Positions 53,303 to 64,000 of a stretch of DNA of 64,000 nucleotides are shown piece after piece. Numbering within the stretch: position 1 is the first letter of the stretch; each line of letters starts with the position of its first letter. Source of the stretch: a virus; IMG/VR virus record IMGVR_UViG_3300045256_000050, positions 124,001-188,000 of that record; one strand, 5' to 3'. The translations under genes were made by a program, and so were the position numbers. The notes below the pieces were generated by a model. It did no database searches and had not been told where the DNA came from. It saw only the letters and a program-made list of their open reading frames with translations.

Positions 53303-54535
53303 TTACAAGTCTCTCTTTAGGCCAAGCCGCTTGGCGAATGTCCATTTCGCCACCTTGACGGCTTCGGGGTCGCCGGTCGCCTTCGTGTCCACGTCGCTGA
53401 TCTTCACCACCGGCATCCCGTTGACGGTCGCCAGCTTCATGACGATATTCATCGCCTTCGTGCCGCCGAAGGGAACGAAGTCGTTGGTGAAGTTCGTCCC
53501 GATCCCCGCTCCGACGGACTTGAAGCAGTTCTTGTAGAGATCGTACAGTTCGACCGCCTGCCCGGCGTTCAGGCCGTCGCTGAACGTGATCCCCTTCGTC
53601 TTGGGGTCGATCCCCAGCTTGCGGTAGTGGCTGAGAATCTTGTTGGCGAACGCCCGTGGGCAGCCGCTATCCTGCCGCACGGCGTCGTACTCATTTGCCA
53701 AGTGCTTGTCGAAGTCCAGCAGGAACACGTCCGTGCCGAACGTGTCAGGCAGGGCGAGCTTCGGCAAGCCGAGCGGCAGGTGCTTCAGCCACAGGTTGAG
53801 GGCGTGCTTGTTGGCGTGGCTCAGCCCTTCGAGGGCTGAGACGCCCATGTACCACTCGTGGGCGACGGTGCCCAGCGGGGCCATGTTGTACTTCTTGGCG
53901 AGGTAGACGTTGCTCGTGCCGAGGCAGTTGTTGTGCTTCTTGAACTCGGCGACCACGGCGTCCTGAATCTCGAAGCTCCGACGACGACGGGTGCCGAACT
54001 CAGAGAACTTGCACTCGCCCATGAACGTCGCCTTCGCCCCCTGGGCGGCGGCGTAACCGGCGACCAGCGATCCGGTCTTTCGCTTCAGGTTGGTCGTTTC
54101 GGCGGCGAAGGTCAACTCGCTGACGAGGGCGAGTAGTGGAACTTCCCACATGATCGCCGTCTTCCACGGGCCGGACACGGTGATCTTCAGGTTGCCCTGC
54201 GGGTCTTCACCAATGGCAACCTCTTCCGGGTTGTAGAAGAAGTTTTGGAGGAAGTCGATGTAGTTCCTCGGGAAGCCGAGGTTGGAGAGGTAGGCGAGTT
54301 CGTGGTCTTCCAACTTCAGCTTCGCCATGCTCTTGATGGCCTGCTGGAGCTTGTAAGGGATGACGCCGTGCTTGAAGCCGTCGGGCCGGGTGCTGCCCCG
54401 GTCGATGAACTTGTACGTCACCTGGGCGTCCGGGTATTCCTGAAAGACGGCGTTGCCCATCAGGAACTTGTACCAGTCGTTGTCCAAGATGGACGGGATG
54501 ATCTTGCATTCCGGGTCGATGTATTCCGTTGTCAT
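53303..54535 (-). CDS. pncB: Nicotinate phosphoribosyltransferase
   Basis: 410 aa, like E. coli PncB (400 aa). Hallmarks: SILDNDWYKFLMGNAVFQEY at the N-terminus, SGPWKTAIMWEVPLLALVSE, then GTVAHEWYMGVSALEG with the phosphorylatable His226, and LLDFDKHLANEYDAVRQDSG plus KGITFSDGLN in the phosphoribosyl-pyrophosphate site. It makes nicotinate mononucleotide from nicotinate, PRPP and ATP. It follows the vWA terminator and has its own promoter-like TTACTT-16-TATCAT, so it may be expressed separately from pncA. Confidence 0.95.
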   Translation of the reverse strand: MTTEYIDPECKIIPSILDNDWYKFLMGNAVFQEYPDAQVTYKFIDRGSTRPDGFKHGVIPYKLQQAIKSMAKLKLEDHELAYLSNLGFPRNYIDFLQNFFYNPEEVAIGEDPQGNLKITVSGPWKTAIMWEVPLLALVSELTFAAETTNLKRKTGSLVAGYAAAQGAKATFMGECKFSEFGTRRRRSFEIQDAVVAEFKKHNNCLGTSNVYLAKKYNMAPLGTVAHEWYMGVSALEGLSHANKHALNLWLKHLPLGLPKLALPDTFGTDVFLLDFDKHLANEYDAVRQDSGCPRAFANKILSHYRKLGIDPKTKGITFSDGLNAGQAVELYDLYKNCFKSVGAGIGTNFTNDFVPFGGTKAMNIVMKLATVNGMPVVKISDVDTKATGDPEAVKVAKWTFAKRLGLKRDL

Positions 54536-54557
54536 GGCTTTCTCCTCTTGTTATCCC

Positions 54558-54585
54558 ATGATACCATCTTCGGGCAAAAAAGTAA
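54558..54585 (-). promoter_or_regulatory. Promoter-like element before pncB
   Basis: On the minus strand TTACTT, a 16-nt spacer, TATCAT, then an AGAGGAG ribosome-binding site before the ATG at 54535. The -35 abuts the terminator of the upstream vWA gene. Confidence 0.45.
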
Positions 54586-54607
54586 GCCGTGGATTTCTCC
54601 ACGGCTT
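54573..54607 (-). terminator. Terminator after the vWA gene
   Basis: AAGCCGTGGA / TCCACGGCTT with a 4-nt loop, followed on the minus strand by ACTTTTTTG. It lies 25 nt past the vWA stop codon. Confidence 0.88.
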
Positions 54608-54632
54608 GCGCTTTCCTGGTTAAGACCCCGTG

Positions 54633-55427
54633 TTAGAACACGAGGCTCTGGCTCGGCCCCTTCGTGCCGAGCGCCTGGGACTGGCTGCTGATCGACTGGC
54701 TGACGAACTTCGCCAGCTTCGCCAGGGTCTTCTCGCTGGCGTCGTTCAGCGACAGGTAGGGGACTTCCGTCTCCTTCCCGCTGGCGTCCTTGACCTTGAC
54801 CGGGGTGAACCCGGCCTTCTGGGCGAACTCGGTCAGGTAGGCGTGCAGCCGGGGGTCGTTGACGTTCACCCCGATCAGGATCGCCACCAGGGACTCCATC
54901 GCCTCGGACTGCACCGCCTCCTTCAGCGCCTCGCCGACGTTGACCGCCGTGAGCAGCGAGGCGTTGTCGTCACCGTCGGTGATGACGAACACGATCCCGT
55001 TGCACAGGAAGTCGTTGGCCGACAGTTGCTTGGCGTAGGCGTTCGACGCCTTGATGGCGTTGTGGCTGCTGTCGAACAGGGCGGTCGTCGCCCCGTTGCC
55101 GGACTTCCCGTAGAAGCCCTGGTAGTCGGCCACGTTGCAGTTTTCGAGCAGCTTGAACCCGTGGAACTCGCTCATCTTCGTGCCGAACACGACGGTGCGG
55201 AGCATCAGGTTGTCGGCACGGGGGCTGTGGCGGCAGGACTTCACGATCTCCTGCGTGGCCTTCTCCATCTCCCCGGCGAACCCGGCCGTCGAACCGGACT
55301 CGTCGAACACGACGGTCGCCAGGGTGTACTCGGTCGCCTGGAGATCGCCGATCTTCGCAGCGGAGAATCCGTAGTGCGAGTTCGGGATGTTGAAGTTCTC
55401 CAGGTCGTCGTCGCCTACGAGGGGCAT
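54633..55427 (-). CDS. vWA-domain protein (TerY-like)
   Basis: 264 aa. The MIDAS metal-adhesion site is complete: VVFDESGSTAGF (Asp42, Ser44, Ser46), GATTALFDS (Thr114) and VFVITDGDDNASLL (Asp151). Length and architecture match TerY-type single-domain vWA proteins. With the kinase at 46846 and the PP2C at 49608 it completes the components described as the TerY-P triad, thought to couple phosphorylation signalling to stress response. Here the three are separated by NAD-synthesis genes. It lies between terminators, so it is probably transcribed alone or by read-through from pncA. Confidence 0.82.
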   Translation of the reverse strand: MPLVGDDDLENFNIPNSHYGFSAAKIGDLQATEYTLATVVFDESGSTAGFAGEMEKATQEIVKSCRHSPRADNLMLRTVVFGTKMSEFHGFKLLENCNVADYQGFYGKSGNGATTALFDSSHNAIKASNAYAKQLSANDFLCNGIVFVITDGDDNASLLTAVNVGEALKEAVQSEAMESLVAILIGVNVNDPRLHAYLTEFAQKAGFTPVKVKDASGKETEVPYLSLNDASEKTLAKLAKFVSQSISSQSQALGTKGPSQSLVF

Positions 55428-55456
55428 GGTATTCTCCTGTGTCTTGTTTGAGTGAA

Positions 55457-55475
55457 GGGGCGGGTTTCCCGCCCC
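55457..55475 (-). terminator. Hairpin after the nicotinamidase gene
   Basis: GGGGCGGG / CCCGCCCC with a TTT loop, 12 nt past the pncA stop. The following minus-strand tract (TTCACTCAAAC) is weak in T, so termination may be partial. Confidence 0.65.
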
Positions 55476-55487
55476 GTGGGTGTTGGG

Positions 55488-56291
55488 TTACGCCAGGAAG
55501 TCCGTCGTGGTCGTGGTCTTCATGCCACGGGCCACCATCTCCTTGATGAAGTCGTCCTGGTTCTTCTCGAACCCAGGGACCGGCGACGTGGCGTCGGTCA
55601 GCAGGACGAGCTTCTTCACGAAGCTGTCGTCCGGGAAGTAGTTCACCATGTCCCGGCCGGTGTTGGCGAGGCAGTGGCTCCCGGCCTCCCCGGCGAGCAG
55701 CACGATGTCCGCCTCGTTCACGGTCTGGAGGAACCCGGTGTTGATCTGGGTGCCTGGGTCGCTCGGGTCCGGCACGTCGGCCTGGATCGCCGAGTAGTGT
55801 TCGGTCAGGATGTTGCTGCCCTTCGTCACGAAGTCGATGCTGCCGAACCGCTGGTTCGACCAGTCCATCAGCTTCTCGTACAGGGCGGGCCAGACCCCGT
55901 GCCCCCACGACCCGATCAGGCAGTGCGGGGGCCAGATGCACAGCGGGTAGCGGCTGTTCTTCTCCAGCCCCTCGACGTAGGCGAGCGCCCGCTTGTACAG
56001 GCCCGGCTTGCTGGTCGTCCACGTCCCGTTCCGCACGTCGGCAGCGGAGATGATCGTGAACGGGTTCGGGTGCTGCCCGGCCGAGTTCTTCCAGAAGACC
56101 GGGTGGGCGATGTGGATCGCTTGGTGGCTGTCGAGGGTGACGTGGATGTCGTGCAGCTTGTCCCGCAGCCGCCCGACCATCGTCGCCAGCCGGTTCATGT
56201 CCTTGTCGGACCCGTTGACGTAGAGTGCCCCCTTCGGGTCGCAGAAGTCGTTCTGCGGGTCGATCACGATCAGGTGTGCCTTGTTCGCCAT
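55488..56291 (-). CDS. pncA: Nicotinamidase (isochorismatase fold)
   Basis: 267 aa. Catalytic triad positions are clear: Asp11 in LIVIDPQNDFCDP, Lys157 in DFVTKGSNILTEHYSA and nucleophile Cys207 in LLAGEAGSHCLANT. The metal site is TLDSHQ (Asp54, His56) with a further His near HPVFWK. It deamidates nicotinamide to nicotinate, the entry step that recycles nicotinamide released by NAD-consuming enzymes. It is longer than E. coli PncA (213 aa), mostly in the 60-150 region. It is the first of the NAD genes on this strand. Confidence 0.93.
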   Translation of the reverse strand: MANKAHLIVIDPQNDFCDPKGALYVNGSDKDMNRLATMVGRLRDKLHDIHVTLDSHQAIHIAHPVFWKNSAGQHPNPFTIISAADVRNGTWTTSKPGLYKRALAYVEGLEKNSRYPLCIWPPHCLIGSWGHGVWPALYEKLMDWSNQRFGSIDFVTKGSNILTEHYSAIQADVPDPSDPGTQINTGFLQTVNEADIVLLAGEAGSHCLANTGRDMVNYFPDDSFVKKLVLLTDATSPVPGFEKNQDDFIKEMVARGMKTTTTTDFLA

Positions 56292-56330
56292 GTCAGCCTC
56301 CGGTAAAGGTTCGGTCTGTTCACCAGGATT

Positions 56331-56945
56331 TTACAGTGGTGCTTCGGGTTGTAAAGCAGCTTTTTCAGCCGCCTCACGCATCGCCAGGATCACGGGTTGC
56401 AGGTCCGCCCACACGTCGGCCTTCGCTGCGGGCGTCCTCAACAAATACGAGGGGTGGTAGGTGCAAATGACCCGCTTCCCCTTGTATTCGTGTTCACCAC
56501 GCAAACTACCCATCGACCGTTCCTCTGGCTTGCCCAGCAGGTAGATCGATGCCGTCTTGCCGAGACAGATGATCCACTTGGGGTCAACGACCTTGATCTG
56601 GAGATCGAGGAACGGGCGGCAGTTGGCCGCTTCTTCCTTCGTGGGCGTCCGGTTGAACGGAGGGCGGCACTTGAGGATGTTGCAGATGAAGATGTGTTCC
56701 CGCTTCCACCCTGCGGCGGCGATGAGCTTGTCGAGAAGCTGACCGGCTTTACCGACGAAAGGTCGCCCGGACCACGCCTCGTCCTCTCCCGGAGCTTCAC
56801 CGAGGATAAGGATGTCGGCGTTCGGGTGGCCCTCGCCGGGGACGTATTTGTACTCGAAGTGATTCCGGTACTCCGAAAGACCACTGCACTTGTTACATGC
56901 AGTGATCTTGGTGTTGATGACTTCTAACGCTTGCGACTTGAGCAT
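56331..56945 (-). CDS. Uracil-DNA glycosylase, family 4
   Basis: 204 aa. Motif A is LGEAPGEDEAWSGRPFVGKA, motif B/C is YHPSYLLRTP. Cysteines at ITACNKC and in NILKCRPPFNRTPTKEEAAN plus CRPF supply the four ligands of the 4Fe-4S cluster typical of this thermostable-type family. It removes uracil from DNA. In a phage this could protect against cytosine deamination or edit host DNA. It starts 7 nt after the preceding stop, in the same operon direction as Thg1. Confidence 0.92.
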   Translation of the reverse strand: MLKSQALEVINTKITACNKCSGLSEYRNHFEYKYVPGEGHPNADILILGEAPGEDEAWSGRPFVGKAGQLLDKLIAAAGWKREHIFICNILKCRPPFNRTPTKEEAANCRPFLDLQIKVVDPKWIICLGKTASIYLLGKPEERSMGSLRGEHEYKGKRVICTYHPSYLLRTPAAKADVWADLQPVILAMREAAEKAALQPEAPL

Positions 56946-56952
56946 CCTGCCC

Positions 56953-57168
56953 TCAATCCTGGTAGTCCTTGTCGAAGTCGGGCTTTTTGCCCTCGTTCCA
57001 CCAGTAGGTGTTTTTCTGGTCGTCTTCGGTCTTGGCGTTCGTTGTCTTCACCAACTTGTTCAGACAGAGACAGCCGACGATGACGGTTCCCAGAATCCCG
57101 CAGACGATCCCCATCCAGAAGTCCGGCGAGTTCATGACCCCGCCGGACCCGTAGGTTGCGAACAGCAT
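56953..57168 (-). CDS. Small single-span membrane protein, 71 aa
   Basis: One transmembrane helix (FWMGIVCGILGTVIVGCLCL, about residues 18-37), a short N-terminal segment and a charged C-terminal tail (AKTEDDQKNTYWWNEGKKPD). It starts 1 nt after the Thg1 stop. It could be a holin-like, spanin-like or membrane-signalling component; nothing specific supports any of these. Confidence 0.6.
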   Translation of the reverse strand: MLFATYGSGGVMNSPDFWMGIVCGILGTVIVGCLCLNKLVKTTNAKTEDDQKNTYWWNEGKKPDFDKDYQD

Positions 57169-57169
57169 C

Positions 57170-57777
57170 TCACTCCTCCTGAGTAACTGGTTCCGACTCC
57201 GTTTTGAGAACCGGGGTGGCCCCCTCGAACATTACCTCTTCCCGGTTGGCGATCCGCTTGAGCGGCGGGATGTCCAACGCCACCACTTCCTGACGGGTGA
57301 TGGTGAGGTTCGGGTTCTTCCGGGCGGCGTGCATCGGCGGGAGCTTGTCCAACTCCTCGGTGCTGAACGGCCGCTCGGTCTTCCGTCGAGCGAGGTAGGT
57401 GCCCCGCTTGAAGAAGTCCGGGTAGTTGTTCCAGTTGACCCCGTGGGTCTGGAACATCATCTCCTGCATCATGCTGCTCGACTTGTTCTGCAACTCCTTG
57501 TGCGAGAACATCGACTGAGCCGCCATGCTGACGCTGTTCCGGGTGGCATCCATCTCCCGCCAGATCAGGTAGTTGGTCGCCTCCCAATCCGTCGGCACGT
57601 TGTACACCCGTGCGTCGAACAGGGGCATCCGGTCGGCCTTCTCTGGGAGGTAGTCCTTCAGGTTGCGGTTGAAAAACGCCGTGGTCATCGACGCCAACAC
57701 GGAAGTCATCTTCAACAACTTGGCGTCGAAGAAGTGTTCGGCGTCGATCTCGTCGGAGTACCACACGAGCGAGATTT
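57170..57777 (-). CDS. Thg1-like 3'-5' RNA polymerase, exon 2
   Basis: Second exon of a gene split by a group II intron (join 60368-60137 and 57777-57170, minus strand). It begins with the last two bases of the Glu codon of the catalytic SDE motif and continues ISLVWYSDEIDAEHFFDAKL, then YLPEKADRMPLFDARVYNVP, YLIWREMDATRNSVSMAAQS and TYLARRKTERPF, all conserved in Thg1/TLP proteins. The spliced protein is 279 aa, the usual length. An unspliced transcript would give only a C-terminal fragment. It adds nucleotides to tRNA 5' ends (tRNA-His guanylylation or 5'-end repair). Confidence 0.9.
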
Positions 57778-57851
57778 GTCGGGTAAGGGCGGAACATCGC
57801 TGCCCGCCCTCCCCTAAGAACCGTGCGTGTAAGTTTCCCTTCACACGGCTC
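57778..57851 (-). ncRNA. Group II intron domains V and VI
   Basis: Domain V (57818-57851) reads GAGCCGTGTGAAGGGAAACT and on to GCACGGTTC, a canonical 34-nt catalytic hairpin. Domain VI follows (GGGGAGGGCGG, then CCGCCCTTACCCGAC) with a bulged A opposite position 57784, seven nucleotides from the 3' splice site. Confidence 0.92.
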
Positions 57852-57873
57852 AAGCAATCGGCTTAGCCACCAA

Positions 57874-59556
57874 TCACGCCTTCTTCCCGTGCTTTGCCAG
57901 ATGGCAGTACAAGTGAAGAATGCGGAGGTTTGCGAGGCTGTCGTCCCCACCTTCCGAACGAGGCTTCACATGATGCTCATGTAACTCCTCGCCGTTGTTG
58001 AGGCTTTCGCCGCACTCAGGACACAAGAAGTTCTGTTGTTTGGCGACCTGACGCTTCTTGACAGTCAAGAGGTCGGACGCCTTTTCAGCGTCCCGCTCCT
58101 CCCAATACTGTTCAAGGGCGGGGTCGTCCCAGCAGGCGAACCGCTGGACAACAACGTGCCTCTTGATGAGAACCCAAGAAGGTTTCATCATGTAGCATTC
58201 GGACGTGCCGAACACCCATTTTGCACCCTTCCGGTAGTTCCCCCAATACCGCTTCAGCCACCCCCAACTCTTGTTGGCGTGACGCCGCCTGACCCAACGG
58301 TATTGCAGTTGGACCAGATAGTTGTCGAGGCCGTCAAAAGTTCGGGACGCCACCGAGCATCGGAAGTAGTTGCACCACCCACGGATGATCGGGTTCACTC
58401 TGGAGATCAGTTCTTCCAAAGGTCGCCCGTCATACTTGCGGAAGGTTTCCTTCAGCTTCTGCTTGATGGCCTTCACGGACTTCTTGCTGGGCTTGATGAA
58501 GAGCTTGTCGCCCTTCTTCGAGGTCAGCGTCTTGTACCTCCTGATGTTGAACCCAAGGAAGTCGAAACCTTCGTCCAGATGGGTGATACGGGTCTTTTCC
58601 TCAGAGAGTTCCAGACCACGTTCCTTCAACCAGACAACTAGCTTCGCCCGAATTGCTTCGGCTTCCTCCTTGGAGTGACACAACACCACGAAGTCGTCGG
58701 CGTACCTGACCAGCCCAACCGAGTTCGGAGCCAGTTCGTAGGTGGTCTTCCCGGTCCCCTTGCGGGTGTTTTTCCGGTACTTGACGCCCAGAACCTCCTC
58801 CATTCCGTGAAGAGCGATATTCGCCAACAAGGGACTAATCACTCCACCTTGCGGCGTACCCGCATGGGTGTCGTGGTAGCTGCCGTCGAATTCGACGTAA
58901 CCCGCCTTCAGCCATTGCCGGATCAATTCCCTTGCGGGAAAATTCCCGATCAACTGCATCAGCTTGTCGTGGTCGATGTTGTCGAAGGCTCCCTTGATGT
59001 CAGCGTCCAGCACCCACAATTTCCCACCTTGGCTGGTGAGTTTGAAGATGCGAGCGATGGCATCTTGGCAAGAGCGTTTCGGTCGGAAACCGTAGGACGA
59101 GTCCTCGAACTTCGCTTCCCAGAACGGTTCCAGTGCGTTAAGCACCATCGCCTGAACAGCACGGTTCGTGATGTCAGGGATGCCCAAAGGACGGAGCTTG
59201 CCGTTGGCTTTCGGTATATAAATCCGTCGTGCGGGACACTTCTTGGCGAGTTGGTATTCAGCCAACTCGTCCACGAGGCGTCCCCTTGCTTCGGGGGTTT
59301 TGACAACGATCTTGTCCACCCCCGGCGTCGTCCTCCCTTTGTTCAACTGCGTCACCCGTCGAACCGCCAGACAGCGGTTCTCGTAGCTCCGCAGCATAAC
59401 ATGCTGAAGACTTCGCACCCTCTTGAGGTTTCCCTCTTTGGCGGCACGGAAAATCTCTTGGCGAAGGCGGCGTACAAAAGTGACGACGTGGGACCAGTCA
59501 ATGCTGTTCCAGTCGCACTTTTGCTGGGAACTTACGCTTTGCTTTTCGTTCTCCAT
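57874..59556 (-). CDS. ltrA: Group II intron reverse transcriptase/maturase with HNH domain
   Basis: 560 aa. RT domains in order: RRIYIPKANGKLRPLGIPDI, SYGFRPKRSCQDAI, WVLDADIKGAFDNIDHDKLM, GTPQGGVISPLLANIALHGM, VRYADDFVVL (YADD at 285-288), FDFLGFNIRRY. The maturase X domain follows (ISRVNPIIRGWCNYFRCSVA). The C-terminal ~45 residues are an HNH nuclease with zinc Cys: CPECGESLNNGEELHEHHVK, then LANLRILHLYC. GGAGGG precedes the ATG. It lies in intron domain IV and should splice the intron and retrohome. No frameshift or missing catalytic residue, so the element looks active. Confidence 0.97.
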   Translation of the reverse strand: MENEKQSVSSQQKCDWNSIDWSHVVTFVRRLRQEIFRAAKEGNLKRVRSLQHVMLRSYENRCLAVRRVTQLNKGRTTPGVDKIVVKTPEARGRLVDELAEYQLAKKCPARRIYIPKANGKLRPLGIPDITNRAVQAMVLNALEPFWEAKFEDSSYGFRPKRSCQDAIARIFKLTSQGGKLWVLDADIKGAFDNIDHDKLMQLIGNFPARELIRQWLKAGYVEFDGSYHDTHAGTPQGGVISPLLANIALHGMEEVLGVKYRKNTRKGTGKTTYELAPNSVGLVRYADDFVVLCHSKEEAEAIRAKLVVWLKERGLELSEEKTRITHLDEGFDFLGFNIRRYKTLTSKKGDKLFIKPSKKSVKAIKQKLKETFRKYDGRPLEELISRVNPIIRGWCNYFRCSVASRTFDGLDNYLVQLQYRWVRRRHANKSWGWLKRYWGNYRKGAKWVFGTSECYMMKPSWVLIKRHVVVQRFACWDDPALEQYWEERDAEKASDLLTVKKRQVAKQQNFLCPECGESLNNGEELHEHHVKPRSEGGDDSLANLRILHLYCHLAKHGKKA

Positions 59557-60136
59557 TTATCCCTCCTTCCCTTGAAATCTTCCGTCCGATCACCTGTCGG
59601 AATTCAGCACCCTTTCGGGTCGGGCATTACCCTATCCAGCCGGTTATGGATTCCCGTTGCCTTTCGGCTGCTGGCATTCGCTTGATCCGACATCCTTTAC
59701 CTGCTGGGGAGTCCAGTGTTGCTCACGCTTCACTTGCTTTCGGGCCGAAACCTTCAAGACCCCAACAGGCTTAACACGTTCCGCAGAACCGAAGGTACGA
59801 CTGCCGTAGGTAGTTCCTATACGCCGGGGATCGGAGGGGTGTTACTGGCCGTTGCCAGACGAAGACAGCCAGCCCTTCTGTGATCCCAGATAACCCGGCG
59901 TCAATTGCATTGCCGAGCCTACTCATCACGACGCTTCAAATGGAACTTCGCTTTCGCTTACCGTAGCAGTCTTTCCCCCGCCCCGGCTTTCTCCCGCAAT
60001 TTGGGTACTCGCCGTTGGGCATTCTTGCTCCCAGCTTCACACGCCTCCGTTGCCAGAGACGCATGTGGGATGGGGAAAAGGTTTAACACAAACCTTGGAG
60101 TTACCTCCACTTCAGTTCAGCGACCTCGTGTCGCAC

Positions 60137-60368
60137 CGTCGCTCTGGGTGTAACCGACCCGTGCGTTCGTCTCTTGGACGAGGAACTTGGTGGTCGCCAC
60201 CATGAGCCGGGACAGCCGCTCGTCGAACGGCCGCTTCAGACCCGCAGTGAAGGTGTGGAACGCCTTGCCGTCCATCCGGGCCACGATGGGAATGAGCGGA
60301 AGGAGTTGTTGGCCTGAGTATTGGAACTCGTAGCCCTTCATGCGGTCGCCGAGACTGTCCTTCTTCAT
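60137..60368 (-). CDS. Thg1-like 3'-5' RNA polymerase, exon 1
   Basis: First exon, 77 codons plus one base. It contains KGYEFQYSGQQLLPLIPIVA and RMDGKAFHTFT, the first metal-binding Asp motif, then VGYTQSD, where the frame meets the intron. The spliced junction gives TQSDEISLVWY, with the second Asp and the Glu of the polymerase-like palm. Read without splicing, translation stops 6 codons into the intron. GGGAGA lies before the ATG. The family can act on tRNA-His or repair truncated tRNA 5' ends; the substrate cannot be decided from sequence. Confidence 0.9.
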
Positions 60369-60481
60369 GTCTTCTCCCTGTTTCAGTTCGATCAGTCTAC
60401 CTCGGAGTTTTCCCGCTGTAAACCACTTCTGTCCTAAAATTGCGTCCGAAATGCCAGTACATACGGGTGGAGGAACTACCC

Positions 60482-60778
60482 ATGATTATTTGTATTCTGG
60501 CACCCAACGACAAGGTTGAAGTGGTGCGGGAGCGGGCTAAGCAAATCCCCAAGTTTGCCAACCACACCGCCCTGTCGGTCCCCGTTTCGGCAACCGGCGA
60601 TCTCCCGGCGACTCATTGGTTCTGCACTTTCAGCACAGACGAGGAGTTGTACGCACAGATCAAAGCCCTACAGGAATTCAGTGAGGTTGTCGAGGCCGAC
60701 CCGAAGGCGTTCCTCGAAGGCAAGAAGCTTAAGCCAATTCCGCTACGCAAGGTCATCGCCGCTGGAAAGGTACAGTAA
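60482..60778 (+). CDS. Hypothetical protein, 98 aa
   Basis: Starts MIICILAPNDKVEVVRERAK after GGAGG. It has an alpha/beta pattern (THWFCTFSTDEELYAQIKAL) and a basic C-terminus (FLEGKKLKPIPLRKVIAAG). The stop overlaps the next ATG (TAATG), so it is co-translated with the oxygenase. Not recognised. Confidence 0.65.
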   Translation: MIICILAPNDKVEVVRERAKQIPKFANHTALSVPVSATGDLPATHWFCTFSTDEELYAQIKALQEFSEVVEADPKAFLEGKKLKPIPLRKVIAAGKVQ

Positions 60779-61395
60779 TGAAGTTTGTCGTGCAGCCCGA
60801 CTTCATCACGCAAGATGAAGTCGGGATCATCAAGTCGTATGAGAAGCCGCAGATCGGCGAAATCCAGAACTACCACATCAAGTCTGTGAACGATGCGGCT
60901 CGGGGCTGGACGATCATGAAGGACTTCAGCCGGACCGACGCCTCGAAGGAAGTCACCCGCTTCCAGGGCGACGGCACGCTCGTCGAAGAAGTGCCGGTCT
61001 ACTTCAAAGACCTGGGCCACAGGATCGCTCGGGCCGTTGGCGTGAGCGACGAACACATGTTCTTCCAGTACATCGTGATTGGTCCCGGCGGCGAGATTCG
61101 CAAACACTACGACGCCGGGAAACCGGGTTACATCACTTACAAGTGCAACGTGTGCGTCGAAGGCCCAGCCGACGACTTCATCTACGTCGGCGACGACGTG
61201 CTGTCGGCCAAGCCACTCGGCCTGTACTGCTTCGAGGCCAACCTGTATAAGCACTGGATGGACACGAGCGACGTGACCCGCATCGTCTTAAGCTACGGGT
61301 TCCTCGTCCCCTACGACTCCCTGGGATGGGCCGAGGACAGCCCCCGCATCCGGTTGAGCAACCGCATCTGGCAGGCTTACATCGGTCGGGGCTAA
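60778..61395 (+). CDS. 2-oxoglutarate/Fe(II)-dependent oxygenase-like protein
   Basis: 205 aa. A double-stranded beta-helix is suggested by FFQYIVIGPGGEIRKHYDAG (H-x-x-D-type near HYD), YITYKCNVCVEG, and a distal KHWMDTSDVTRIVLSYGFLV, where His and Arg would bind iron and 2-oxoglutarate. Phage members of this superfamily modify DNA bases, proteins or small molecules. The iron ligands are inferred from spacing, so the assignment is moderate. Its 3' end overlaps a convergent minus gene by ~108 nt. Confidence 0.6.
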   Translation: MKFVVQPDFITQDEVGIIKSYEKPQIGEIQNYHIKSVNDAARGWTIMKDFSRTDASKEVTRFQGDGTLVEEVPVYFKDLGHRIARAVGVSDEHMFFQYIVIGPGGEIRKHYDAGKPGYITYKCNVCVEGPADDFIYVGDDVLSAKPLGLYCFEANLYKHWMDTSDVTRIVLSYGFLVPYDSLGWAEDSPRIRLSNRIWQAYIGRG

Positions 61396-61698
61396 GAACT
61401 TGGTCTTGAACTCGTGGTAAGCAAGGATGGCGGGGTTGAGGATGGCACAGTCCGCCCCCGTCAGGTACTTGCAGGTCATGAACGTCGGGTAGTCCTTGAC
61501 CTTGTGCCTAGACGCCTTGTCGATGTACTCGTACATGCACCAAACGTCTTCTGGCAGCTTCTCTCCCGCCTGCTTGAATGCCAGGGGCAGGAAGATCACC
61601 GCCAGGAGACGCTTGTCGTCTTCGGGAATCATCCAACTCCCGAAGACCTTGCCGTCTACGACATCAACCGCCAGTTGTTTGAGTTCCGCTTCGGTCAT
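61288..61698 (-). CDS. Hypothetical protein, 136 aa
   Basis: Starts MTEAELKQLAVDVVDGKVFG. The first ~95 residues look genuine (MIPEDDKRLLAVIFLPLAFK, YEYIDKASRHKVKDYPTFMT). The last ~40 (DVSLPDAVAQPDAGAVLGPS) are antisense to the oxygenase gene and may be incidental. It overlaps the upstream minus gene by 35 nt. No family recognised. Confidence 0.6.
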   Translation of the reverse strand: MTEAELKQLAVDVVDGKVFGSWMIPEDDKRLLAVIFLPLAFKQAGEKLPEDVWCMYEYIDKASRHKVKDYPTFMTCKYLTGADCAILNPAILAYHEFKTKFLAPTDVSLPDAVAQPDAGAVLGPSQGVVGDEEPVA

Positions 61699-61942
61699 CC
61701 GATTCCTTCGGTAGTGGCGGGCACGGGTTGCCGTCCTCGTCCACGAATCCTGTCTTGTAAAAGTCGTACTCGATGTAGCCGCAGAAGCCAAGTCCGCAGA
61801 ACTTCCAGTCGTCCTTGAACTGCTGGGGCACGTCCACCTTCACCCCATTCTCGTACAACTCAACCTCATGGACATTGAGGTTCTGCATCTCCCGGTACTT
61901 CTGGATCAGTGCCCGGACTTCTTCTACGTCTACTCGGATCAT
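61664..61942 (-). CDS. Hypothetical protein, 92 aa
   Basis: Starts MIRVDVEEVRALIQKYREMQ, overlapping the Nudix stop (ATGA). A middle segment KDDWKFCGLGFCGYIEYDFY carries two Cys; the C-terminus is polar (PPLPKESDDRSGTQTTGG). Likely a small co-translated accessory protein. Not recognised. Confidence 0.65.
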   Translation of the reverse strand: MIRVDVEEVRALIQKYREMQNLNVHEVELYENGVKVDVPQQFKDDWKFCGLGFCGYIEYDFYKTGFVDEDGNPCPPLPKESDDRSGTQTTGG

Positions 61943-62592
61943 GTGGGTGGCAACATGTAAGAGGTTGAGATACGGCCCATCTGCCGGATCATGTACAGCA
62001 TGGGCCACGCCTTCGCAGCGATCACCACGCCCTCGAACTCGTCGGTCCGGTCGCAGAGCCGCTTGACGCCCTCGTAGTCGAGTAGCATCGGCTCGATGAT
62101 TTCTTCTTCTTCGTGGCCTTCCACGTCGAGCTTGCCGCTCGCCAGACAGAAGACCATCTGCACCGACTCGTCGCTCAGCCCGGCGGACGACACGATGGGC
62201 GGGCTGACTTGCAGCACACGCTCCAGCGTCAGCCCGGCCTCTTCTTTCAGTTCACGACGGGCGGCTTCGACCGGACCCTCGTCGCCGTCGATCAGTCCCG
62301 CAACGAACCCATACTCGAAGTTCTGGATCGGGTGCCGCCACTCCTTCGTGACGAGCAGCTTGAGTTCGTCCTGGCCTTCGACTGCGACGAAGGCCATGCA
62401 GATCACGGCGTCCGGTTGGATGTTCTGGAAGCTCTTGGAGAGGGCCGGGAGCTTCTTGCGGGAAGCCATCAGCCACGAACCCTTCTTCAACGTCCCGTTG
62501 CCTTCATCCCCGGTCTGGTAGTCCATCCGGTAGACGTTGAGCCAGGGGGTGTTGAGCAGGGTTTCCATCCCGGTGAGGGTCGTCGGCTTCAT
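61939..62592 (-). CDS. Nudix hydrolase, ADP-ribose-pyrophosphatase-like
   Basis: 217 aa. The Nudix box GLIDGDEGPVEAARRELKEE followed by AGL fits G-x5-E-x7-R-E-U-x-E-E-x-G-U exactly. The N-terminal strands (NVYRMDYQTGDEG, GSWLMASRKKLPAL) and PDAVICMAFV then LLVTKEWRHPIQNFEYGFVA match ADP-sugar pyrophosphatases. ADP-ribose is the likely substrate, which would connect it to the NAD genes, but other nucleoside diphosphate derivatives are possible. The ATG at 62592 follows a TGA two nt upstream. Confidence 0.88.
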   Translation of the reverse strand: MKPTTLTGMETLLNTPWLNVYRMDYQTGDEGNGTLKKGSWLMASRKKLPALSKSFQNIQPDAVICMAFVAVEGQDELKLLVTKEWRHPIQNFEYGFVAGLIDGDEGPVEAARRELKEEAGLTLERVLQVSPPIVSSAGLSDESVQMVFCLASGKLDVEGHEEEEIIEPMLLDYEGVKRLCDRTDEFEGVVIAAKAWPMLYMIRQMGRISTSYMLPPT

Positions 62593-62593
62593 C

Positions 62594-62821
62594 TCAGTCG
62601 TCTCCGAAAAGTTTGCGGGCATTAGCGATGGCGGGCACGAGGAGATCGAAAGCCTTCTTCTGGCTCTCGATCTCACGCTCGTGCCCGTCAGTGACGACCC
62701 CCGTCGGCGTCAGTACGCCGACGGTGCCGTAGGTATCAAGGTGCTTGTAAGCGTGTTCCGCCGCCTCCAGCAGCTTCAGGAACACAACGTCGTCACCCAC
62801 GTTCTTCTGTTGCTTAGGCAT
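62594..62821 (-). CDS. Hypothetical protein, 75 aa
   Basis: Starts MPKQQKNVGDDVVFLKLLEA after AAGGAG. A single helical protein (AAEHAYKHLDTYGTVGVLTP, ESQKKAFDLLVPAIANARKL). It lies between the RNA ligase (15 nt) and Nudix genes in one operon. Not recognised. Confidence 0.65.
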   Translation of the reverse strand: MPKQQKNVGDDVVFLKLLEAAEHAYKHLDTYGTVGVLTPTGVVTDGHEREIESQKKAFDLLVPAIANARKLFGDD

Positions 62822-62836
62822 CCTTGCCGCTCCTTC

Positions 62837-63934
62837 TTAGTGGAACTCGGTCCCACCCTTCCGCTCGTGGTAGTCCACCGAGATCGACTTCAGGATAACA
62901 CGCCCGAAGTTCGGCAGCAACTCGGAATACCGTTCCTTAACAGGCGTGACCACCACGCCCTCCCGGCCCTTGAACTTACTGGTGTTCTCCTCGGCCGAGC
63001 AGACGGTCGTCGTGCCGTCCGTGTGCTGCGTCAGCACGTCCATACTGAACGGCCCACGGTACAGGATCGGCACCATGTCGATCCCGTGCTTCTTGAACAA
63101 CTCCACTTTCACGTCGAAATCCAGGTACTTGCCGTTCACGGCGATGTCGAACGCCCGGTAGGCGGCGGTCTTCACCCCGTAGGCCATGTCCTGAATGCCC
63201 GGTCCGTAGATTTCTCCGTACACCACCACGTTGTTCTGGTGGGCACAGAGTTCCACGAGCAGGTTCTTCATGTTGTCGGTCATCGGCAGCCAGTAGAGCG
63301 ACTTCACGCCCTTGTCGTTCTGCGGCTTCCGACGGGTGCCGTGCGAACCGGCGACGAACGTCCACTCCATGCTGCCGTCCGTGTCGTTCGGCTGCTGGAC
63401 GATCCCGACCCGGCTGTTGGTGCCGTGCAGCTTCTCCGTGAAGATCACTTCCTCGCCGTCCACCAGCACGCCGGGGAAGTTCCCGATGTTCTCGATGTCG
63501 GTGTAGGCGTGGAACGTCCCGATGGGCGGGGCGGCATCGCCGTCCATCGCCTTGACCGGCGGCTCGTACTTCTTCACGCCCCAGGCTTCGACCATGCTCG
63601 TCCCGACGGGGAGGCTCTGGTCGTCGAGCGGGGCGAGGAACCCCTGCGACCGCTCACCCCGGAGGCGGGCCGCACGGATACGCTGGCCCGGTGGCCGGGT
63701 GCCGTCGATCTGCTTGGCGAGCGGGGCGGTGTACTTCGTGATGCCCCACTTGTCCGTCAGAGCTTCACTGACGACAGAATCGGGCGGCAGGTACACGCCT
63801 TTCTGGCCGACCTGCCAGTTGCCGGTCCCGCTGATGACCCACCAGTTTTTGACCCGAACGAGTTCGAGTCGGTCGGCACCGGGGTGCTTCTTGACTTCTT
63901 CGACCTGAACTACGTCAACGATCAGGGTACTCAT
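62837..63934 (-). CDS. RNA ligase with N-terminal OB domain, Rnl5/DRB0094-like
   Basis: 365 aa. The N-terminal ~150 residues look like an OB-type domain (VEEVKKHPGADRLELVRVKN, then KWGITKYTAPLAKQIDGTRP). The nucleotidyltransferase core has motif I FTEKLHGTNSRVGI (Lys168), motif III-like VVVYGEIYGPGIQD, AYRAFDIAV, motif IV REGVVVTPVK and motif V ILKSIS. This order (OB first, ligase second) matches the Deinococcus DraRnl/Rnl5 family, which seals 3'-OH/5'-P nicks in RNA or RNA:DNA. The ATG at 63934 was chosen because AGGAGGG precedes it. Confidence 0.85.
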   Translation of the reverse strand: MSTLIVDVVQVEEVKKHPGADRLELVRVKNWWVISGTGNWQVGQKGVYLPPDSVVSEALTDKWGITKYTAPLAKQIDGTRPPGQRIRAARLRGERSQGFLAPLDDQSLPVGTSMVEAWGVKKYEPPVKAMDGDAAPPIGTFHAYTDIENIGNFPGVLVDGEEVIFTEKLHGTNSRVGIVQQPNDTDGSMEWTFVAGSHGTRRKPQNDKGVKSLYWLPMTDNMKNLLVELCAHQNNVVVYGEIYGPGIQDMAYGVKTAAYRAFDIAVNGKYLDFDVKVELFKKHGIDMVPILYRGPFSMDVLTQHTDGTTTVCSAEENTSKFKGREGVVVTPVKERYSELLPNFGRVILKSISVDYHERKGGTEFH

Positions 63935-63937
63935 CGT

Positions 63938-63974
63938 GCCCTCCTTTCGGCAGTAAGACACTGCCCAGGAGGGC
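63938..63974 (-). promoter_or_regulatory. Ribosome-binding-site-sequestering hairpin before the RNA ligase gene
   Basis: In the minus-strand mRNA, GCCCTCCT (from 63974) can pair with AGGAGGGC, which contains the Shine-Dalgarno 4 nt before the ATG at 63934. An inner stem GGCAGT / ACTGCC strengthens the hairpin. Folding would block translation initiation, so a temperature-, protein- or RNA-controlled switch is possible. The remaining 26 bases to the window edge hold nothing recognisable. Confidence 0.6.
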
Positions 63975-64000
63975 AGGTTCACATCTTGAAGGAATCGCCC

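What the first reader, a model, noticed from the sequence alone, without database searches (positions are those of the whole stretch)
57170..60368. Group II intron splits a phage Thg1-like gene exactly inside the SDE catalytic motif
Seen: a full-length Thg1-like protein is recovered only if 57778-60136 is removed. The junction GACG/AAATC rebuilds the Glu of Ser-Asp-Glu. The intron has GUGCG at the 5' end, a canonical domain V, a domain VI bulged A seven nt from the 3' end, and an intact RT-maturase-HNH. Known: group II introns often insert into conserved functional codons but are rarely found in phage genomes, and Thg1/TLP genes are uncommon in phages. The insertion makes the tRNA-end enzyme depend on splicing and could act as a timing control.
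Basis: partly seen in the sequence, partly recalled or inferred. Interest (0 to 1): 0.87.

Follow-up and report, generated by a model that had tools for sequence, protein, structure and literature searches.

The report
Group II intron in phage Thg1 gene
A large phage carries an RNA enzyme gene (Thg1, which builds RNA in the reverse direction) that is cut in two at its catalytic site by a complete self-splicing mobile intron; the sequence evidence is clear, but introns of this type in phages were already reported in 2025 and splicing itself is not shown.

Summary
On the minus strand, removing window 57778-60136 (2359 nt, GUGCG...CGAC) joins two exons into an intact 279-aa Thg1-like protein, with the Glu of Ser-Asp-Glu split G|AA. 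Rfam finds group II domain V/VI ending exactly at the predicted 3' splice site and a D1-D4 match near the 5' end. The intron encodes an intact 560-aa RT-maturase-HNH. Of 83 other phage Thg1 loci inspected, 82 (73 distinct genes) read through the site; one (L039) is syntenic, shares 15 identical bases across the junction and has no intron. So this is an intron inserted into one phage lineage.

Group II introns in phages were surveyed in 2025 (PMC12350094: 20 in reference phages, hits in 9,229 IMG/VR contigs), and Thg1 occurs in 127 reference phage records and at least 559 IMG/VR stretches. Nothing supports a timing control; the plain reading is a selfish retroelement in a conserved coding site. 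The only other intron-split Thg1 found is in a contig identical over the 26.9 kb compared, so the host gene looks unreported, but the element is a new member of a known kind. Splicing and mobility are inferred, not shown.

The parts
60137..60368 (-). Thg1 exon 1 (codons 1-77 plus first base of Glu78)
   Evidence: splice; tblastn to residues 1-77
57778..60136 (-). Group II intron, 2359 nt, GUGCG...CGAC
   Evidence: absent in 82 homologous loci
60019..60097 (-). D1-D4 core match (RF02012)
57874..59556 (-). Intron-encoded protein, 560 aa: RVT_N, RT (YADD), maturase (GIIM), HNH; AAGGAGG upstream of ATG
57778..57853 (-). Domains V and VI; bulged A 7 nt from the 3' end
   Evidence: RF00029 55 bits; fold
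57170..57777 (-). Thg1 exon 2 (rest of Glu78 to stop)

Best explanation
A complete group II intron of the bacterial type with an RT-maturase-HNH protein (probably IIB with a chloroplast-like protein) has retrohomed or retrotransposed into the Thg1-like gene of a large phage, in the Glu codon of the catalytic Ser-Asp-Glu motif. The maturase is translated from its own ribosome-binding site inside the intron, helps the intron RNA fold and splice, and the exons rejoin to a full-length Thg1 mRNA. The intron persists because splicing makes it nearly neutral, and the target codons are conserved in other phages, giving future homing sites. The Thg1 protein most likely repairs or edits RNA 5' ends, perhaps together with the neighbouring RNA ligase. 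Shown by sequence: anatomy, boundaries, intact ORFs, intronless alleles. Inferred: splicing, mobility, Thg1 activity.
For: RNA-model hits at both intron ends with the exact 3' boundary; canonical GUGCG/AC ends, D5, D6 bulged A; intact RT-X-HNH protein, best solved match 6me0 (group II maturase RT) E 3e-117; exact in-frame junction, with D33, D77 and E78 among the 32 residues invariant in nine phage Thg1 proteins; 82 of 83 other loci uninterrupted there, and syntenic L039 carries the same 15 bases CAGAGCGACGAAATC with no intron; both exons and the IEP show excess third-codon-position change against relatives (codon positions 1/2/3: exon 1 vs L039 19/17/49; exon 2 vs L039 72/47/127; IEP vs L120 214/162/324).
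Against: No RNA data. EBS1-IBS1 is weak: CGUC/GACG, four pairs in the hairpin loop where the Streptomyces relatives L124/L125 have six; the best EBS2 candidate (UCUGGG with CCCAGA, intron 247-252) lies elsewhere than in those relatives, so exon recognition is not settled. Only one phage population carries it: the second contig is identical over all 26.9 kb compared.
Confidence: 0.9

Rival explanations
1. The intron is regulatory: splicing timing or host condition controls when active Thg1 appears.
For: Unspliced translation would end at 83 aa, without the Glu of SDE and everything after it, so Thg1 strictly needs splicing.
Against: This holds for any intron in a coding sequence; no regulatory feature was found; 82 homologous loci have no intron at the site; single phage population.
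Confidence: 0.04
2. Splicing is lost or very poor and Thg1 is a recently disrupted gene on the way to a pseudogene.
For: EBS1-IBS1 has only four clear pairs; Thg1 is fragmentary in some phages (L013, L101).
Against: Both exons, the IEP, D5 and D6 are all intact; a dead gene or intron would be expected to collect frameshifts, though a very recent insertion would not yet show them.
Confidence: 0.05
3. Assembly artefact joining a bacterial intron into a phage contig.
For: Only two contigs, identical where compared, possibly from related samples.
Against: Boundaries are exact at both ends with the phage gene continuing on both sides; a second contig record has the same junctions.
Confidence: 0.01

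Closest known systems
Phage group II introns of Merk, Jones and Eddy 2025 (PMC12350094)
   Same: Group II introns interrupting conserved phage genes, several encoding RTs, some in jumbo phages, with intronless homologues
   Different: Thg1 is not named as a host gene in the main text; the supplementary tables could not be read, so this contig may be among their 9,229 IMG/VR hits
Bacterial group II introns with RVT_N-RT-maturase-HNH proteins (Sinorhizobium, Chlorohelix, Chondrocystis plasmids; the maturase of 6me0)
   Same: Same domain order, D5/D6 and D1-D4-7 type in part of them; 47-53% IEP identity
   Different: The window IEP is a long separate branch with no close relative found
Thg1-like protein of solved structure 4kgk (called Bacillus thuringiensis TLP from memory) and phage tRNA-His guanylyltransferases (phrog_4717)
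   Same: Spliced product aligns over residues 4-209, E 4e-44; catalytic residues kept
   Different: The gene is interrupted by an intron; its C-terminal 70 residues beyond the 4kgk match are shared with large phages

Membership tests
Group II intron | Domain V (with VI) at the 3' end | tested here: met
   RF00029 55 bits, full length
Group II intron | 5' GUGYG and 3' AY, bulged A in D6 | tested here: met
   GUGCG...GAC; A 7 nt from end
Group II intron | D1-D4 structure | tested here: met
   RF02012 40.6 bits; full D1 not modelled
Group II intron | EBS-IBS exon pairing | tested here: inconclusive
   Four-pair EBS1, unsettled EBS2
Group II intron | IEP with RT and maturase domains (mobile members) | tested here: met
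Group II intron | Self-splicing and retrohoming | not testable with these tools
   Needs RNA or a mobility assay
Thg1/TLP family | Thg1 domain with Asp ... Ser-Asp-Glu metal site | tested here: met
   Pfam Thg1 2.6e-30; D33, D77, E78 invariant
Thg1/TLP family | 3'-5' nucleotide addition activity | not testable with these tools
   Enzyme assay needed
Group IIB, chloroplast-like IEP class | RNA subclass and IEP class | tested here: inconclusive
   Closest solved IEP 6me0 and RVT_N domain; no class reference set was aligned

The most novel reading that the evidence does not exclude
The intron makes phage Thg1 production depend on splicing in a way that is used as regulation, for example linked to RNA damage or infection stage, so a retroelement has become a switch for an RNA-repair enzyme.
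Probability: 0.04. Interest if true: 0.75.

Novelty: new member of a known kind. Interest (0 to 1): 0.33.

Why it matters
It adds a clear, intact, RT-bearing phage group II intron in an unusual host gene, with intronless alleles that match the junction, including one in a syntenic phage. That makes a clean system for testing splicing and retrohoming in a phage. It also shows that a gene caller would see this Thg1 as two fragments and miss a full enzyme. It does not change the general picture set by the 2025 survey.

Tried and rejected
Other intron-split Thg1 genes: 80 best Thg1 loci, 80 best RT-maturase viral loci and two splice-site DNA patterns found only the identical contig. The two patterns cover only some codon choices and the lists keep only the best 80 loci, so this is not exhaustive. 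D5/D6 searches of 17 other Thg1 phage contigs found none.

A recent bacterial donor: none in genome contigs (best 56% over part of the protein, L025) or plasmids. The genome-contig scan used exact 8-residue words, so it finds close relatives only.

CGUCGU at intron 204-209 pairs with all six bases of IBS1 but was rejected as EBS1, because it aligns with a motif conserved in relatives and lies outside the EBS1 hairpin.

Thg1 N-terminal fragments that end just before QSDE (phage PJN02; L101/L104) were checked as possible other intron cases: no Rfam intron and no second exon nearby.

No structure prediction was run: the sequence evidence was enough.

Full report
What is there. The window is bases 124001-188000 of a 244,986-base virus record. 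On its minus strand, 60368-60137 and 57777-57170 are two exons of a Thg1-like gene, separated by a 2359-nt intron. The join is in frame over 280 codons and restores YTQSDEISLVW. The Glu codon is split after its first base. Unspliced, the reading frame ends six residues after QSD, giving an 83-aa fragment.

The intron. Rfam places D5/D6 at 57778-57853 (55 bits) and a D1-D4 model at 60019-60097 (40.6 bits). The 3' end of the D5/D6 match is the predicted splice site. The ends are GUGCG and AC, and D6 folds with a bulged A seven nucleotides from the end. The 560-aa ORF has RVT_N, RT with YADD, maturase and HNH domains without interruption, preceded by AAGGAGG. The closest solved relative is the maturase of 6me0 (E 3e-117), and its nearest public relatives are plasmid-borne bacterial introns at about 47-53% identity. 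A quick tree leaves it as a separate branch near those bacterial proteins. There is one copy in the record.

The empty site. Of the 83 Thg1 loci other than this phage that I examined, 82 (73 distinct genes) have one uninterrupted match over residue 78; the exception is a truncated gene in Bacillus phage PJN02. L039 (IMGVR_UViG_3300031991_000117) shares the order RNA ligase, Thg1, PncA-like, VWA-like, nicotinate phosphoribosyltransferase with the window, has 61% identical Thg1, no intron, and the same 15 bases CAGAGCGACGAAATC over the junction.

How it works. Established knowledge of group II introns gives the mechanism: the maturase binds the intron RNA, two transesterifications remove it, and the lariat RNP with RT and HNH can insert into intronless alleles. 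Exon recognition is the weak point here. In two Streptomyces relatives, EBS1 pairs fully with six exon bases and EBS2 with six more. In the window, the equivalent hairpin loop offers CGUC for GACG, four pairs, and the EBS2 candidate UCUGGG/CCCAGA lies in a different place. I therefore treat the pairing as plausible, not shown.

Why the catalytic motif. The site -12..+6 is 67.5% identical to the window on average over the 73 distinct genes, against a median of 53% for 18-nt windows, ranking 48 of 793. So it is a well-conserved site but not the best in the gene. Conservation of a target in many phages is the ordinary reason for group II introns to survive there. Nothing points to regulation.

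What is known. Merk, Jones and Eddy (2025, PMC12350094) reported 20 group II introns in reference phages and hits in 9,229 IMG/VR contigs, found 14 of the 20 in coding regions with intronless homologues, and noted that splicing was not tested. Their main text does not mention Thg1; supplementary tables were not available. A jumbo-phage overview (PMC7824862) describes Thg1 as sporadic in jumbo phages and as part of an RNA-repair set. This case is a well-supported new member, in a host gene I did not find reported.

Limits. The record may be a fragment, the phage host is unknown, and the second contig carrying the intron is identical over the 26.9 kb compared, so it does not count as an independent evolutionary observation. 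No RNA evidence exists in these tools.

Noticed in passing
window 53303-63982: RNA ligase, NUDIX, Thg1, family-4 uracil-DNA glycosylase, PncA-like isochorismatase-fold protein (weak match), VWA-like protein (phrog_7371; VWA is a guess from its sequence) and nicotinate phosphoribosyltransferase cluster together; most of the order is shared with L039 and parts with L042, L044, L049, L108. It looks like an RNA-repair plus NAD-salvage cassette.
   Followed up: partly
L006, L040, L045, L068 and others: In 19 of 84 phage Thg1 loci, tRNA genes lie within the fetched flank, up to 17 in one locus; the window phage record itself has only two tRNAs (Glu, Leu) and none for His.
   Followed up: partly
L053:3617-3689, L068:8548-8618, L069:8125-8200: Three phage tRNA-His genes near Thg1 have a G just before position 1 in the DNA, so Thg1 there may repair ends instead of adding a missing G-1; very small sample.
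   Followed up: no
L101:1429-1635, L104:2808-3014, L013:2998-3264: Thg1 N-terminal fragments that stop a few codons before QSDE; in L101/L104 a full Thg1 follows about 1 kb downstream.
   Followed up: partly
L051:3171-4795; L113:5626-5946, L114:5626-5946: Two tandem full Thg1 genes in L051 and a C-terminal Thg1 fragment downstream of a full gene in L113/L114.
   Followed up: no
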